Assembly (NCBI GenBank): GCA_019117125.1
Contig: DXAL01000049.1
Span: forward strand, 1-36,364
Direction: 5' to 3'
DNA length: 36,364 nucleotides
From: Candidatus Mediterraneibacter merdipullorum
GTDB taxonomy: Bacteria; Bacillota; Clostridia; Lachnospirales; Lachnospiraceae
The notes under the pieces were generated by a model. The model searched no databases. It was not told the origin of the DNA and saw only the letters and a program-made list of their open reading frames with translations. The position numbers and the translations under genes are program-made. This document shows positions 29,641 through 36,047 of the stretch, one piece after another; positions within the stretch are counted from its first letter, which is position 1, and each line of letters starts with the position of its first letter.

Positions 29641-30189
29641 CTATTTATATCCCTCCGCCACTTCACCAAACCGGACGGTCAGCCCTTCCAGCACACCGGA
29701 AGGCACCGGTTCCGTGTATGCATACTCGCAGCTTTTCTGCGGGTCTTCAAAATTGAACACCGTAACAACCTCCTGAAACGGGTCCACAATCCAGTACTCC
29801 CGCACTCCCGCTTTCTGATACAGCATAAGCTTTCTCACATAATCGTGGGAAGAACTGCCCTTCGAGACAATCTCGATCACCCAGTCCGGCACCCCTGAGC
29901 AGCCTTTCTCCGTCAGGATGTCCCGATTGCATACGACCAGCAGGTCCGGCTGCACGATCGTGCTGTCGTCTCCGAAAAGGCGGACGTCAAAAGGAGACAC
30001 ATAAACTTCGCATTTCCCTTTCTTTTTCCGGATATAACTTTTAATCTCAAAAAGCAGTTCGCTCACGAAATACTGATGAAGTCTGCCCGGCGCGGAAAGC
30101 ATGTAAAGTTTCCCGCTGATGAGTTCCGCCCTGTCGGATTCAGAAAGCTGCTCCATATCTTCTCTGCCGTAATCCCTCGCGGAGTACAT
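29641..30189 (-). CDS. Uma2-family (DUF820) putative restriction-like endonuclease
   Basis: Protein of 182 residues in the Uma2 family of PD-(D/E)XK-fold proteins. The conserved run AELISGKLYMLSAPGRLHQ, VQPDLLVVCNRD, GVPDWVIEIVSKGS and GVREYWIVDPFQEVV includes the usual Asp (QPDL) and the Glu of VIEI with Lys in the next segment. The real function of the family is unclear and many members are probably not nucleases of foreign DNA. The ATG at 30189 has no good ribosome site; the frame is open upstream past an AAAAGGAGGAG site at about 30230, but no ATG, GTG or TTG follows that site at a normal distance. It stands alone. Confidence 0.82.
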   Translation of the reverse strand: MYSARDYGREDMEQLSESDRAELISGKLYMLSAPGRLHQYFVSELLFEIKSYIRKKKGKCEVYVSPFDVRLFGDDSTIVQPDLLVVCNRDILTEKGCSGVPDWVIEIVSKGSSSHDYVRKLMLYQKAGVREYWIVDPFQEVVTVFNFEDPQKSCEYAYTEPVPSGVLEGLTVRFGEVAEGYK

Positions 30190-31897: not shown

Positions 31898-33355
31898 CTA
31901 CTGCCATTGAAACATACAGCGCACCGTCTCCCTGTCCTTTTCCTTCTCTGTCTCAGACAGTTCCCGATAGGGAATCAGGGAGCGGTGGATGCGCTGTTCC
32001 GTATCTTTCGCCTTTCCGCTTTCCGGAATGCCGTATGTCCACCCGTTCAGGAGATGATACCGGCACCAGCGGATATGCTCAAGTTCTGCAAACAGTTCCA
32101 GATACGGCTGATAAGCCGACTCATCTGTCCGATCGCTTCCGGTCAGTTTTTGCAGCATCTGCTTCCTTATCTCATGATAATCCACGGAGCTGACATTGGA
32201 ATATCTCGTGAACCCGTCCAGCTTTCTCCATTCCGCTTCTCTGACCGCTTCATTTGACGCCGACGCCTCCCCGGCAGCGGCACTCCCGTACATCACCGCG
32301 TAATTCAGGTTGAGCTGCTTCGCCTGTTCAAAGAGTTTCTCATTTAAGATATTTTCAATCTTTCTCCCTTCCCGCTCCGCATCGTACACATGGAGATTTT
32401 GGCTGGCAAACAGCATCTTCAGCACATTCTTTTTCCTGCTGAAGAAGTCGATGCGTTTTTGGGGAACAACAGCGAGCAGGTCGTTCATAAATTCTACTTC
32501 CTTTTCCTGGTCTGCAACAAGGATGCGGTCAGCCTGCCGGATGCAGTCCATGCACTGATACCATGCTTCCCCGTGAAAAATGACCGGGTCTCCCATATCC
32601 TGAAATCCGGGATGACAGGCGGTGAATTTTTCTCCCGCATCAAACACATGATACGCTATCTTCTGGTCCGGATGGAAGATATTCTTCTGCACCCCTTCCG
32701 TCAGAAGCGCTTCGCACAGTTTCCCGCCGCCGATGAGCACGATTTTCAGCTTATAATCCGATGCCGCAGCTTCTTCCAGCAGGGAATGTTCTTTCCAGTA
32801 GGTCCTGGCTTCCGCCTCTTCATACTGAAAGAAATGCAGGTTCCTGCACTTCGCATCCTGCGGCCGCAAAGCGGCAGACTTCACATACACCTGCTTTTCC
32901 TGCAATCTGTCCATGTATCTGCAGTAGAAATCATAATTCTTCTCTTCCTCTGCATACATCAGGATATAGCGCTCCGCGCGGACCAGTTCTCCTTCCGGTC
33001 CCCGGATGCCCCTGCTCCCAAGCTGAGCGAGCATTTCCTCCGCATCCCTGCCATCTCCGTAAACGCAAATACTGTTTCCGCTCAGGTATCTCAGGCCCCG
33101 GCGCGCACGTTCCCGGATGCTCACAAAAGCCATGACCAGCCCGCTCGCCGTCGCAAGAGGCGCCAGCCACCGGGCGATCTCCACCCAGATATTGGGCGGC
33201 GTATCCCCGTAATTCATGAAATACAGGATAACTCCCTGAAACGCCGCGTCCGCAAATGACATCTCATGCGTCGATAAAAACCCGAATAATGCCAGCACGA
33301 ACGGGACAAAAAACGCGATGACCTTTATCGGTCGTTTTATTTTTTCTGCTTTCAT
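31898..33355 (-). CDS. Membrane protein with TrkA-N-like Rossmann domains and C-terminal RyR domain
   Basis: Protein of 485 residues with an unusual build. Two hydrophobic helices (about residues 9-28 and 58-80) frame a loop with FADAAFQGVILYFMNYGD, a layout shared with 2TM/TrkA-N proteins of many bacteria and loosely like an ion channel. Then comes a Rossmann-type segment, SICVYGDGRDAEEMLAQLG, and a second one, LKIVLIGGGKLCEALL, in a long cytoplasmic part. The C-terminal 65 residues form a RyR domain: AELEHIRWCRYHLLNGWTYG and SLIPYRELSETEKEKDRE. RyR domains occur in bacterial conflict and nucleotide-signalling systems. Divergent from a TIR-NB-ARC-TPR gene with a shared promoter region, so a link is inferred. 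ATG at 33355 has GGGGGA upstream. Confidence 0.78.
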   Translation of the reverse strand: MKAEKIKRPIKVIAFFVPFVLALFGFLSTHEMSFADAAFQGVILYFMNYGDTPPNIWVEIARWLAPLATASGLVMAFVSIRERARRGLRYLSGNSICVYGDGRDAEEMLAQLGSRGIRGPEGELVRAERYILMYAEEEKNYDFYCRYMDRLQEKQVYVKSAALRPQDAKCRNLHFFQYEEAEARTYWKEHSLLEEAAASDYKLKIVLIGGGKLCEALLTEGVQKNIFHPDQKIAYHVFDAGEKFTACHPGFQDMGDPVIFHGEAWYQCMDCIRQADRILVADQEKEVEFMNDLLAVVPQKRIDFFSRKKNVLKMLFASQNLHVYDAEREGRKIENILNEKLFEQAKQLNLNYAVMYGSAAAGEASASNEAVREAEWRKLDGFTRYSNVSSVDYHEIRKQMLQKLTGSDRTDESAYQPYLELFAELEHIRWCRYHLLNGWTYGIPESGKAKDTEQRIHRSLIPYRELSETEKEKDRETVRCMFQWQ

Positions 33356-33383
33356 GATAATCCCCCGTCATTTCTTTTCTGAT

Positions 33384-33413
33384 ATTGTAACACGCACGCC
33401 CGGAGCCTGTCAT
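33384..33413 (-). promoter_or_regulatory. Promoter of the RyR-domain gene
   Basis: Minus strand ATGACA (33413-33408), 18 bases, TACAAT (33389-33384), close to the ATG at 33355. Its -35 lies about 38 bases from the -35 of the divergent TIR gene promoter, so one regulator could control both. Confidence 0.6.
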
Positions 33414-33450
33414 GCGATATGAAAAAATGCATGATGAAAATCACAGTGAA

Positions 33451-33479
33451 TTTACAGCAAAATGCGGTTGTGATAAAAT
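33451..33479 (+). promoter_or_regulatory. Promoter of the TIR-NB-ARC-TPR gene
   Basis: TTTACA (33451-33456), 17 bases, TAAAAT (33474-33479). Transcription would start near 33486, just before the GGGAGGTG ribosome site at 33502-33509. This rules out the longer reading frame that begins at 33412. Confidence 0.65.
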
Positions 33480-33513
33480 CGTCTTAGACCAACATATCCC
33501 CGGGAGGTGTCTT

Positions 33514-35838
33514 ATGCATCGCGAAGTCTTTATCAGTTACCACAGAAATTCATCAGCTGAACTTGTAGAACATATAGTAAATGTACTGGAGGAGAGCGGA
33601 ATAAAATGCTGGTATGCCCCGCGCGACGTTGATTCCAAATACGCCGGCGATATCGTCCGGGCGATTGACGACTGCCGCATCTTCCTGCTGATTATGAACG
33701 AATATTCCACGCACTCCGAACATGTGCTCAATGAAATCAATTACGCGTTTAACCGCTTCCATCAAAAAGAAGCCATCCGGCTCCTCCCGTTTCGGACCGA
33801 CAAAAACGAACCGTCTGATGACGTCAAATATTATCTCGGACGCATCCACTGCCTGGATGGCTCTGAGCCGCCGGAGGACGAGCGGATAGACGCTCTCGTA
33901 TCCCGGATTTCCTATCTGCTCCAGAGCGACAGCGAACGGACAGATGCCCCCGGTCCCTGCGCTGCGCCCGCAGGCTTCCCTTCCGCCATCCGGAGCACTG
34001 CGCTGATACACAATACAAATTTCACCGGGCGCACGAAAGAACTGGAAGAGATGTACCGTCTCCTCCATTCGGGCAATAACAAACTGTTCCTTTCCGGTCC
34101 CGGCGGAATCGGGAAAAGCGAGCTTGCCCGCCAGTACGGCATCCGGTTCGGAGCAGAATACCGGACCATTGTCTGGTTTTCCTACAACACGGATATCGAA
34201 GATATGATTGTCACCGACCAGTTCCTCCTGATACACGGACTGGAAAATGACCGGCAGGACCTGACAACGCCGCAGGCAAGGGAAGCATACTATTATAAAA
34301 AACTGAATTATCTGAAAGACCACTGCGACCAGAACACCCTTCTCATCGTCGATAATTTCGACGCGGAAGACGGACGCCTCACAGAACTGCTGGAGGGGCG
34401 GTATTCCGTCATCCTTTCTTCCCGGATAAGCCGGGAAAAAGACGGGTATCAGGAAATGTCCATCCATCCGCTGGACGACCCTCAGGAACAGCTTGCGCTC
34501 TTCTGCAGGTTCTACAAACGCCCTCTGGATGACAGCGGAAAAGCTGCTGTATTCCGGCTGTTGGAAAAGATAGGGTCCCACACATACGGCATCGAACTGC
34601 TCGCAAAACAGATGCAGGCATCCCGGATGTCCCCGGAAGGCATGCTGGACTATTTCAGCGGGAAATCCGCTTCTTCCGAAAGACGCTCCAGGCTTGTCGT
34701 AGACCATATCATGGAAGTCATGACACAGATTTTCCGGCTGAGCGCTCTTTCCGATGAGAAAGTCTCCATCCTGAAAAATATGGCGCTCCTGCCTGTAGAG
34801 GGTGTAGAGACAGAACTGTTCTTCGACCTGACAGAACTGGAAGACTTTATGCTCATCGACGAGCTCATTGACAGCAGCTATATCCAGTACAACTATATTT
34901 CCGACGTTATCTCGCTCCACCCGCTTATTGCCAGTACGATATCCCGCGCTTATCCGAATTTCGCGAAAAGCTGCGGGACTTATGTGCGCAGCCTGACAGA
35001 GCGGCTTTCCCGGTTTACGCAGTTTCGGTACAACGAGAAGATGACGCTTCTCTCCCTTGCGGAAAACTATTATCTGAAATGGTGCGCACCGGATACTGCT
35101 GATGACATTTCCTTTATGGAGCGTCTTGCCGAAGCATATGCCGAATATTTCATGCGCGATAAGAGCATCGCCATCATGGAACGGCTCATCGGTCTCCACC
35201 CGGAGCCGCTAAAGGAAAGCTGGTATCACTATTATATCGCCAATCAGAGACGATGCCTCTCCCAGTATGAGGGACTCGCAAAAGAAGCCTCCATTTCCCT
35301 GGAACTGGTGGAAAAACTTCCCCCATCCCCGCAAATGAAACAGCAGCTCTCTCTGTCCTGCTCCATGATGGGCTGGGCAAAATACCACGAGGACCGGCTG
35401 GAAGAATCCGCAGATTATTTTGAGAAATCTCTGCAGCTGCGAAAAGAAATCCTCTCCGACGAAGATGTACTGCTCGCATGGGCTTACTATAACAGCGCCA
35501 GCGTCCTGTACAAGGCGGGCGACATCCAGAAGGCGGTGCAGTATTACGAAGAGGCGATACGCCGATTTCTCCAGTGCGGGGAGACCGGCATCTGCGTACC
35601 GGCATATATCAGCATTGCGGAAGCATACCTCTCTCTGGATGACTTTGAAAAGGCAGAGCAGGCTCTTGAACAGGCATTCATCTGCGAATATGAATACTAT
35701 GGGGAAGAAAACTGCCGAAAATACTGGCTTTACGAAGTAAAGGCAAAAATCCTCGCCAGGAAAGGGATGACAGAGCAGGCGGCGGAATATGAGCAGCGCT
35801 CCAAAGAGGAATACGAAAAATATATGGGAAGAGCCTGA
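33514..35838 (+). CDS. TIR / NB-ARC ATPase / TPR protein (NLR-like)
   Basis: Predicted NLR-like sensor of 774 residues. The TIR domain at residues 1-140 opens with REVFISYHRNSS and has CWYAPRDV; Glu74 in VLNEINYAF lies where NAD-cleaving TIR domains carry their catalytic Glu. The NB-ARC ATPase runs from about 170 to 450: NFTGRTKELEEM, Walker A GPGGIGKS (195-202), Walker B LLIVDNFD (276-283), SSRISRE sensor, and a GIELLAKQM segment. Helical repeats follow, with clear TPR units from about 600 (GWAKYHEDRLEESADYFEKS, ASVLYKAGDIQKAVQYYEEA, AEAYLSLDDFEKAEQALEQA). Start ATG 33514 has GGGAGGTG 6 bases upstream. By analogy with TIR-NLR phage defence proteins, the TPR part senses, the ATPase oligomerises and the TIR depletes NAD or makes a signal. 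Confidence 0.88.
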   Translation: MHREVFISYHRNSSAELVEHIVNVLEESGIKCWYAPRDVDSKYAGDIVRAIDDCRIFLLIMNEYSTHSEHVLNEINYAFNRFHQKEAIRLLPFRTDKNEPSDDVKYYLGRIHCLDGSEPPEDERIDALVSRISYLLQSDSERTDAPGPCAAPAGFPSAIRSTALIHNTNFTGRTKELEEMYRLLHSGNNKLFLSGPGGIGKSELARQYGIRFGAEYRTIVWFSYNTDIEDMIVTDQFLLIHGLENDRQDLTTPQAREAYYYKKLNYLKDHCDQNTLLIVDNFDAEDGRLTELLEGRYSVILSSRISREKDGYQEMSIHPLDDPQEQLALFCRFYKRPLDDSGKAAVFRLLEKIGSHTYGIELLAKQMQASRMSPEGMLDYFSGKSASSERRSRLVVDHIMEVMTQIFRLSALSDEKVSILKNMALLPVEGVETELFFDLTELEDFMLIDELIDSSYIQYNYISDVISLHPLIASTISRAYPNFAKSCGTYVRSLTERLSRFTQFRYNEKMTLLSLAENYYLKWCAPDTADDISFMERLAEAYAEYFMRDKSIAIMERLIGLHPEPLKESWYHYYIANQRRCLSQYEGLAKEASISLELVEKLPPSPQMKQQLSLSCSMMGWAKYHEDRLEESADYFEKSLQLRKEILSDEDVLLAWAYYNSASVLYKAGDIQKAVQYYEEAIRRFLQCGETGICVPAYISIAEAYLSLDDFEKAEQALEQAFICEYEYYGEENCRKYWLYEVKAKILARKGMTEQAAEYEQRSKEEYEKYMGRA

Positions 35839-35881
35839 GCGTCTCTTCCTCCCGCCGTCCGCAATGAGCCGGACGCACCTC

Positions 35882-36032
35882 GGTCGCGGCATTCGCCGCT
35901 CCGTCCGCAATGAGCCGCTCGCACCTCGGTTCCGCTTCGCTCCACCTTGGTCGCGGCATTCGCCGCTCCGTCCGCAATGAGCCGCTCGCACCTCGGTTCC
36001 GCTTCGCTCCACCTCGGTCGCGGCATTCGCCG
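35882..36032. repeat. 67-bp tandem repeats
   Basis: Units start at 35882, 35949 and 36016 (the last is partial), period 67, nearly identical. A shortened unit, lacking 21 bases, precedes them from about 35855. Each unit holds the hairpin GCGGC-ATTC-GCCGC and the words GTCCGCAATGAGCC and CACCTCGGT. Confidence 0.85.
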
Positions 36033-36047
36033 CATGGAATCGGTGCC

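What the first reader, a model, noticed from the sequence alone, without database searches (positions are those of the whole stretch)
31898..35838. Divergent pair: RyR-domain membrane protein and TIR-NB-ARC-TPR protein, a candidate two-gene immune or NAD-signalling system
Seen: a TIR / NB-ARC / TPR gene with an intact P-loop and a candidate catalytic Glu74, back to back with a 2TM / Rossmann / RyR gene. The 158-base gap has two good promoters whose -35 boxes are about 38 bases apart. Known: TIR-NLR proteins act in phage defence by NAD depletion or signal making, and RyR domains occur in bacterial conflict and nucleotide-signalling systems. Inferred: the TIR protein makes a nucleotide product that the RyR/Rossmann part binds, opening or disrupting the membrane. 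I do not recall this exact pair as a named defence system.
Basis: partly seen in the sequence, partly recalled or inferred. Interest (0 to 1): 0.82.

Follow-up and report, generated by a model that had tools for sequence, protein, structure and literature searches.

The report
TIR enzyme paired with RyR channel
A bacterial gene pair probably works as an alarm: one protein makes a chemical signal from NAD when it senses trouble, and the other is an ion-channel-like membrane protein that carries the ryanodine-receptor domain, so it may let bacteria test how such signals open channels.

Summary
A 485-aa RyR gene (31898-33355, -) and a 774-aa TIR-STAND-TPR gene (33514-35838, +) stand back to back, 158 bases apart. 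The RyR protein is modelled confidently (pLDDT 94) as TM1 - pore-helix - TM2 - two Rossmann (RCK-like) domains - RyR. A sister family has the same cytoplasmic part behind a canonical K+-channel pore; here the filter is degenerate (NYGD). Its RyR domain keeps the four residues with which phage RyDEP holds cADPR isomers. The pairing is not chance: 34 of 74 homologous loci have a TIR gene within two genes (about 0.2 expected), in three orientations, with varied sensor modules (NTPase-TPR, TPR, Sel1, WD40, MORN, LRR); 3 have a DUF4062 gene instead. The effector stays, the sensor swaps. Best reading: a Thoeris-like system in which an activated TIR makes an ADP-ribose-type signal that gates a RyR-domain channel. 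Ligand, ion flux and phage defence are inferred, not shown. Against: 34 of 74 loci show no such neighbour by my model (one of them has a TIR it missed), and pore homology by sequence is weak. The open library showed no description, but a key TIR survey preprint could not be read.

The parts
31898..33355 (-). RyR-domain channel-like membrane protein, 485 aa, putative effector
   Evidence: ORF; Pfam RyR 39.1 bits; AF2 pLDDT 94.1, pTM 0.89
33083..33352 (-). TM1 (res 2-27), pore-helix-like (34-46), TM2 (56-91)
   Evidence: AF2 helices; invariant R62, near-invariant N55, E59, W63, P66 in 70 sequences
33203..33214 (-). NYGD (res 48-51), at the position of the K+-channel selectivity filter
   Evidence: profile alignment sets it on GYGD of the sister family, weak score; column make-up
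32816..33073 (-). first Rossmann / RCK-like domain (res about 95-180)
   Evidence: AF2
32366..32755 (-). second Rossmann / RCK-like domain (res about 201-330)
   Evidence: AF2; GsuK and KtrA fold matches
31907..32122 (-). RyR domain (res 412-483) with H427, W430, H457, D474 = RyDEP H75, W78, H100, D117
33356..33513 (.). 158-base divergent intergenic region; promoter-like sites 33384-33413 (-) and 33451-33479 (+), not above chance
33514..35838 (+). TIR-STAND-TPR protein, 774 aa, putative sensor and signal maker; Shine-Dalgarno-like 33502-33509
33526..33897 (+). TIR domain (res 5-128)
   Evidence: Pfam TIR_2 60.4 bits; the only TIR_2 match in this genome at E 0.01
33733..33735 (+). Glu74, candidate catalytic Glu
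34096..34119 (+). P-loop GPGGIGKS (res 195-202)
   Evidence: read from the translation; G195, G197, G198, G200, K201 invariant
35356..35808 (+). TPR region (res about 615-765)
   Evidence: Pfam TPR_12, TPR_MalT

Best explanation
The pair is a two-gene TIR signalling system, Thoeris-like in logic, with a new kind of effector. Step 1 (inferred from architecture): the TPR/STAND part of the TIR protein senses an infection cue and oligomerises. Step 2 (inferred; residues present): its TIR domain converts NAD+ to an ADP-ribose-type nucleotide, possibly a cADPR isomer. Step 3 (inferred from the conserved RyDEP pocket and the recurrent neighbourhood): the C-terminal RyR domain of the partner binds this molecule. 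Step 4 (inferred from fold and homology): binding is passed through two RCK-like Rossmann domains to a two-TM pore derived from a K+ channel, which opens and collapses ion gradients, halting growth or killing the infected cell. Shown by computation: the architectures, the conservation of the pocket and of the catalytic Glu, the non-random and repeatedly re-formed pairing, and the same two genes at unrelated sites in two species. Rough odds: functional pair 0.93; TIR is an NAD-using enzyme 0.85; RyR is the receptor of its product 0.7; output is an ion channel 0.65; anti-phage role 0.75.
For: Pairing: 34 of 74 loci have a TIR gene within 2 genes (30 adjacent), 3 more have an adjacent DUF4062-type gene; chance about 0.19 of 74 (loci not independent). 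Orientation of the 34: 24 tandem, 5 divergent, 5 convergent. 41 TIR partners fall into 17 full-length clusters, two of them short pieces (L116, L154); on the RyR tree the two commonest partner types each need at least 4 changes that starred branches force (quick tree). In the window's own clade the three effectors pair with TIR, TIR and DUF4062-type. 34 of 35 proteins (window plus 34 partners) match Pfam TIR_2; modules include TPR, Sel1, WD40-type propellers, AAA_16, LRR and MORN. Pocket: H427, W430, H457, D474 align with RyDEP H75, W78, H100, D117; kept in 70, 70, 70 and 67 of 70 sequences. RyDEP binds and cleaves 2'/3'cADPR (PMC13232231, text parts 1-2 of 6 read). Channel: AF2 topology; GsuK matched over 472 columns; sister family joined at E 1.5e-60 over res 152-481, 13 of 13 of which carry Ion_trans_2 plus RyR. 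Mobility: the fetched G056 locus shares with the window only the two genes; in 4 of 10 congeneric stretches, those with both flanks in view, the MATE-tRNA-Lys interval holds other genes.
Against: 34 of 74 loci have neither a TIR within 3 genes by my model nor a DUF4062-type gene (8 of them within 1 kb of a contig end). One of these, L157, does have a TIR_2 gene two genes away that the model missed (29.7 bits), so the count is a slight undercount, but most remain. 3 of 34 carrier genomes have no TIR_2 at all, so some of these channels do without one or use another partner. The K+ filter is not conserved: position 48 is N in 38 and G in 10 of 70. Ion_trans_2 is not hit by the window protein and by only 1 of 70 sequences (E 0.0064); the pore-only profile match is weak (probability 4%, P 0.0098; score 18.3 against at most 17.3 in 40 shuffles) and the global alignment failed. 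Generic dehydrogenases outrank GsuK in Foldseek and its TM-score is 0.33. 69 of the 70 sequences were picked by a pattern that contains H427 and W430, so their conservation there is partly built in; in the set of 22 found without it H427 is invariant and W430 at 90% or more. The RyDEP catalytic pair is kept too, so the domain might cleave. Defence genes were not sought in the rest of the window; of the two neighbours scanned one is a MATE exporter and one a Uma2-family putative nuclease.
Confidence: 0.55

Rival explanations
1. Signal off-switch: the TIR protein is the toxic NADase or signal maker and the RyR membrane protein removes the product as a RyDEP-like glycosidase or sponge, as a built-in brake or antidote.
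For: RyDEP's catalytic dyad H75/D117 is present as H427/D474, and RyDEP cleaves 2'/3'cADPR (PMC13232231).
Against: A brake does not explain a conserved two-TM pore-like part, two Rossmann domains and an invariant R62. The dyad does not force cleavage: PMC13232231 reports that the other tested phage homologues did not degrade the signals while six of eight bound them, and that animal RyR keeps the same residues.
Confidence: 0.15
2. The TIR protein acts alone by NAD depletion; the RyR protein is a K+ channel that answers falling NAD or rising ADP-ribose for ion homeostasis and merely travels with TIR genes.
For: GsuK, a fold match with tandem Rossmann domains, has been solved with NAD and with ADP (titles of 4gx2, 4gx1); many loci lack a TIR gene; sister channels are mostly not next to TIR (1 of 13).
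Against: Rare and patchy (2 of 58 in the genus, 3 of 398 in a phylum sample, the window's genome counted in both) rather than housekeeping; neighbourhood far above chance and repeatedly re-formed.
Confidence: 0.15
3. Membrane disruption without a selective pore: ligand-driven clustering of the two TM helices permeabilises the membrane, as proposed for TM-macro ThsA.
For: Filter is degenerate; TM-macro ThsA is modelled to cluster its TM domains on nucleotide binding (PMC11204291, passages read).
Against: AF2 places a short helix of pore-helix type between the TMs, and the cytoplasmic part is homologous to that of a true channel family.
Confidence: 0.12
4. Chance neighbours.
For: Divergent orientation, each gene with its own promoter-like site in the window.
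Against: Expected 0.19 of 74, seen 34; the same pair lies at an unrelated site in G056.
Confidence: 0.02

Closest known systems
Thoeris (ThsB TIR + ThsA effector)
   Same: TIR protein beside a separate effector that has a nucleotide-binding domain
   Different: Effector is neither SIR2-SLOG nor TM-macro (the two types in PMC11204291, passages read); it is 2TM - two Rossmann - RyR. The TIR partner here is a STAND-TPR protein. A type VI is mentioned in PMC13232231; I could not read the full list of types
RyDEP, phage RyR-domain anti-Thoeris protein (PMC13232231; PDB 35tm)
   Same: RyR domain with H75, W78, H100, D117 all kept
   Different: RyDEP is a small phage protein (138 aa) that destroys the signal; here the domain caps a host membrane protein encoded with the TIR
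GsuK-type 2TM K+ channels with RCK gating rings
   Same: TM1 - pore helix - TM2 - tandem Rossmann (GsuK over 472 columns)
   Different: Filter degenerate (NYGD), extra RyR domain, weak pore sequence similarity
Bacterial K+ channel - Rossmann - RyR sister family (L061-L072, L075)
   Same: Same cytoplasmic part, E 1.5e-60; pocket His/Trp/His kept at 90% or more
   Different: Canonical TVGYGD-type pore, mostly not next to TIR (1 of 13)
Bacterial TIR-STAND (NLR-like) proteins (recalled as defence proteins)
   Same: TIR + P-loop NTPase + TPR
   Different: Paired with a dedicated RyR membrane partner
Swarozyc (DUF4062 TIR-like NADase; PMC13174449)
   Same: DUF4062-type proteins replace the TIR partner in 3 of 74 loci (Pfam-confirmed for L082 and for L041, the same contig as L099; L080 by motif only)
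   Different: Reported there to deplete NAD; the word RyR does not occur in that paper (0 occurrences)

Membership tests
Thoeris | TIR-domain protein encoded with a separate effector | tested here: met
   (that the partner is an effector is inferred)
Thoeris | effector of a described ThsA type (SIR2-SLOG or TM-macro) | tested here: not met
   no SIR2, SLOG or macro match in the window protein or among the 25 of 31 families shown for 70 sequences; other published types could not be read
Thoeris | TIR recognised by curated ThsB models | tested here: inconclusive
   PADLOC ThsB E 0.0025 only, SAVED-TIR scores better at 1.2e-5; Pfam ThsB_TIR matches 7 of 35 TIR proteins, not the window's
Thoeris | TIR makes an ADPR-type signal that activates the effector; phage defence | not testable with these tools
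   E74 conserved; pocket conserved
Pfam RyR (R12 domain) | profile score over cut-off | tested here: met
   39.1 against 27.4 bits; 70 of 70 sequences, window included, match at E up to 1
RyDEP-type ligand pocket | H75, W78, H100, D117 | tested here: met
RyDEP-type enzyme | cleavage of cADPR isomers | not testable with these tools
2TM K+ channel | Ion_trans_2 profile | tested here: not met
   no match in the window protein, 1 of 70 sequences at E 0.0064
2TM K+ channel | TVGYGD-type selectivity filter | tested here: not met
   NYGD; column 48 N 38, G 10 of 70
2TM K+ channel with RCK domains | TM1 - pore helix - TM2 - tandem Rossmann fold | tested here: met
   fold of one chain only, tetramer not modelled, GsuK TM-score only 0.33
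TIR-STAND-TPR (NLR-like) | TIR, P-loop NTPase, TPR in one chain | tested here: met
   NTPase by P-loop and weak AAA_16, NB-ARC model itself not significant

The most novel reading that the evidence does not exclude
A TIR-made cyclic ADP-ribose isomer directly opens a bacterial RyR-domain ion channel as an immune output. This would be a ligand-gated channel effector in TIR immunity and a prokaryotic counterpart of the disputed cADPR - ryanodine receptor link of animals, with one channel effector shared by many exchangeable TIR and DUF4062 sensors.
Probability: 0.38. Interest if true: 0.92.

Novelty: new variant of a known kind. Interest (0 to 1): 0.75.

Why it matters
If right, it adds an ion-channel effector with a ryanodine-receptor ligand domain to TIR immunity. 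It would also explain why phages carry RyR-domain proteins that bind the same signals: they would share the receptor fold of their target. Whether cADPR acts directly on RyR is an old question in animal calcium signalling (recalled; PMC13232231 says cADPR has been implicated in RyR modulation and that its structure supports future studies of a direct interaction). A 485-residue bacterial protein that can be expressed with or without its signal maker makes the principle testable.

Tried and rejected
Rejected: a canonical K+ channel (filter and Pfam model fail). Rejected: chance neighbours. No support for a plasmid- or phage-borne system: no plasmid record matches at E 1e-10, and 39 pattern hits in viral contigs gave no relative. 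Rejected as support: the two promoters. Pore-only global profile alignment gave nothing useful. A weak pPIWI_RE_Y match in 10 of 70 sequences (best E 0.00048) was not followed.

Literature: 10 searches. Of the papers listed I saw none whose title or shown abstract describes a bacterial TIR + RyR membrane pair; several lists were mostly off-topic (nearly all TrkA receptor papers). 'Not found in print' covers only this open-licence library, these terms and these listings. The Yirmiya 2025 TIR survey and a 2015 nucleotide-systems paper that I looked up by a DOI from memory are not held.

Bias notes: the TIR model was home-made from 10 TIR domains, the window's and neighbours already seen; Pfam TIR_2 matched 34 of 35 of its proteins at E 0.001, and Pfam found one that it missed (L157). 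The DUF4062 label rests on a short motif. Genes were called by longest ORF, not a trained caller. Six of 80 loci were dropped for lack of a full ORF (L106, L110, L118, L121, L123, L156); five more (L087, L128, L130, L131, L138) were left out of alignment A2 and hence of the tree for length. In the tree TIR at three genes' distance counts as none, and 8 loci at contig ends were not given a state. L055's partner was left out of the clustering. The baseline used 35 of the 80 loci (34 genomes) and one gene per kb. The printout was cut in the middle, so not every TIR-less neighbour was read.
Full report
What is there. The window is contig C29 of genome G000 (2.31 Mb, 55 contigs). The minus-strand gene 31898-33355 codes for a 485-aa protein with a C-terminal RyR domain; the plus-strand gene 33514-35838 codes for a 774-aa protein with TIR, P-loop NTPase and TPR parts. 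The gap is 158 bases. An ATG at 33412 would lengthen the TIR protein, but 33514 has a Shine-Dalgarno-like GGGAGGTG upstream and begins where the TIR fold begins. It is the only TIR_2 match in the genome. The closest named genome found with the pair is Ruminococcus turbiniformis (L079; its contig has the length of G056:C6).

Anatomy of the RyR protein. With 70 aligned sequences AlphaFold2 gives mean pLDDT 94.1 and pTM 0.89: helix 2-27, short helix 34-46, long helix 56-91, one Rossmann-like domain at about 95-180, a second at about 201-330, a helical linker, and RyR at 412-483 (the domain names are mine). Both ends of the membrane part are rich in Lys/Arg (read from the sequence), which fits cytoplasmic termini. 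Foldseek ranks generic Rossmann dehydrogenases first (best E 2.2e-4). The only channel with a K+ pore among the 50 rows shown is GsuK (E 1.3e-3, probability 1.00, 472 alignment columns with gaps, TM-score 0.33 by query length; the aligned range is not printed); the K+ transporter entry 5but (KtrAB) has TMt 0.56.

A sister family explains the membrane part. The search also found proteins of 519-550 aa that match only from residue about 95-180 on. Thirteen of these (A5) all carry Ion_trans_2 and RyR (13 of 13 each), with the canonical filter: V62-G-Y-G-D66 invariant in A5, seen as TTVGYGD, TSVGYGD or STVGYGD. Profile comparison joins the two families at E 1.5e-60 over residues 152-481. For the pore alone the match is weak (P 0.0098, probability 4%), but it sets NYGD on GYGD and scores 18.3 where 40 column shuffles reach 17.3 at most; the global alignment failed. 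So the cytoplasmic half is homologous to that of a true K+ channel family; homology of the pore is inferred from position, topology and this weak match. The filter itself has drifted: position 48 is N in 38, G in 10, E in 10 and D in 7 of 70, so ion selectivity cannot be predicted.

The RyR pocket. In the 2026 preprint PMC13232231 (outline, text parts 1-2 of 6, first part of the reference list and passages read) a mycobacteriophage RyR protein, RyDEP, binds and hydrolyses 2'cADPR and 3'cADPR; H75, W78, H100 and D117 contact the ligand, H75/D117 being the catalytic pair. I fetched this gene (L160), found that PDB 35tm holds the same sequence, and aligned it: the four residues fall on H427, W430, H457 and D474 of the window protein. 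They are kept in 70, 70, 70 and 67 of 70 sequences. H427 and W430 are part of the pattern by which 69 of these were found, so only H457 and D474 are free of that bias; in the 22 sequences found without the pattern H427 is invariant and the other three are at 90% or more. In the sister family the two His and the Trp (H469, W472, H494) are at 90% or more; the near-invariant Asp there, D512, lies one column off the profile match to D474.

Is the pair more than chance? Three views. (1) Genus: 7 of 58 genomes match the RyR protein, but only 2 full length (G000 and G056); G056 has the same divergent pair, 69% (RyR) and 76% (TIR) identical. (2) Family sample: 55 of 397 genomes match. I fetched 40 places wide (38, 2). 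Of 21 full-length homologous loci (L039-L059; one from the genus, 20 from the family sample; two of them, L047 and L050, end close to the gene) 10 have a TIR gene within two genes, and L041 has a DUF4062 gene next door. (3) Named genomes: one scan gave 80 loci (the best of 259 relatives), 74 with a full ORF. TIR is the next gene in 30, second in 4, third in 3; 3 more have an adjacent DUF4062-type gene; 34 have neither, 8 of them within 1 kb of a contig end. One of these 34, L157, has a TIR_2 gene two genes away that my model missed. With 63 TIR_2 matches in 34 of these genomes about 0.19 loci of 74 would have a TIR within two genes by chance; 34 do (loci are related, so the nominal P is not to be taken at face value). 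The sister K+ channels serve as a control: 1 of 13 has a TIR gene within four genes against 10 of 21 (Fisher P 0.024). TIR_2 is found in 31 of 34 carrier genomes (several families of Bacillota) and in 66 of 150 genomes of the window's family, so these are not matched samples.

The sensor changes, the effector stays. Of the 34 partners within two genes, 24 are in tandem, 5 divergent, 5 convergent. Forty-one TIR partners (window, 34, and 6 of the earlier set) fall into 17 full-length clusters, of which L116 and L154 are short pieces. Among 35 proteins scanned, 34 match TIR_2; TPR_12 is in 17, Sel1 in 9, AAA_16 in 8, a WD40-type propeller model in 5; LRR and MORN partners are in L052 and L053. 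On a quick tree of the RyR proteins the window's partner type (T4) needs at least 4 changes forced by starred branches and the next type (T3) at least 4, though both are somewhat more clustered than shuffled labels. In the window's own clade (support 100) the three effectors pair with TIR-STAND-TPR, TIR-STAND-TPR and a DUF4062-type protein; DUF4062 was reported as a TIR-like NADase (PMC13174449, summary and passages). Seen from the TIR side, 5 of 397 family genomes have a protein aligned to the window's from the TIR start to residue 485 or beyond; 4 of the 5 carry the full-length RyR protein, adjacent in 3 and about 70 kb away on the same contig in G212; G211 has only partial RyR matches.

Mobility. 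The fetched G056 stretch (18 kb) shares with the window only the two genes (31901-33225 and 33503-35815). Of 10 congeneric stretches around the MATE gene, 4 have both flanks of the window (MATE gene and tRNA-Lys) in view, and the space between holds other genes, by eye among them a two-component system and transport-like proteins; in the other 6 the tRNA was not in the stretch. The RyR protein is rare: 3 of 398 genomes of a phylum sample at E 1e-30, the window's included, no plasmid record, no viral contig.

Mechanism. The best reading is given above: sensing by TPR/STAND, NAD-derived signal by TIR, binding by RyR, gating of a two-TM pore through RCK-like domains. Glu74 of the TIR is on the catalytic column (one search sets it on a Glu of a TIR-STING fusion in a weak match, E 0.033). 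Every biochemical step is inferred. The main rival is a brake, since the RyDEP catalytic dyad is present; but the preprint reports that its other tested homologues did not degrade the signals, and six of eight bound them, so the dyad does not force cleavage.

Known or new. Logic and genes resemble Thoeris, in which ThsB TIR proteins signal to ThsA effectors of SIR2-SLOG or TM-macro type (PMC11204291, passages). The partner tested here is neither, so it is not filed as a described Thoeris type. In ten searches of the open library I saw no RyR-domain membrane partner of TIR; one key preprint could not be read. Hence 'new variant of a known kind'.

Noticed in passing
L044:10871-12532 (-), L078:7918-9594 (-), L077:7558-9261 (-): A second RyR architecture of 553-567 aa, with no ion-channel match (RyR Pfam 57.9-64.2 bits) and an HD-like motif by eye. 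In L078 it is next to a TIR-TPR gene; in L044 it sits beside the RyR channel gene and one gene away from the TIR gene.
   Followed up: partly
L051:5310-10275 (+): Three-gene run: small TIR protein with Sel1/TPR repeats, STAND ATPase with N-terminal hydrophobic segment (by eye), RyR channel; L133 looks similar.
   Followed up: no
L058:7244-8482 (-): The RyR channel homologue lies beside a protein with a weak Card1-like (CRISPR-ancillary type) match, Pfam E 0.0029, under its cut-off.
   Followed up: no
L080:6218-7018, L082:9459-13715, L099:3214-7044: DUF4062-type proteins take the place of the TIR partner; in L082 with NPHP3/NTPase domains. L099 is the same contig as L041; L080 was identified by motif only and its ORF nears the contig end.
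   Followed up: partly
window 35876-36033: 67-base G+C-rich tandem repeat, 2.4 copies, 97% matches, between the TIR gene and tRNA-Lys.
   Followed up: no
window 29641-30189 (-): Uma2-family putative nuclease gene (Pfam 107.4 bits); DNA similar to it lies next to the MATE gene in 5 of 10 congeneric stretches (L240, L241, L242, L243, L245).
   Followed up: no
G085:C1, G137:C8, G144:C4, G115:C15: Other RyR-domain ORFs lie within a few kb of TIR_2 matches in these genomes (coordinates), so RyR-TIR neighbourhood may be wider than the channel family.
   Followed up: no
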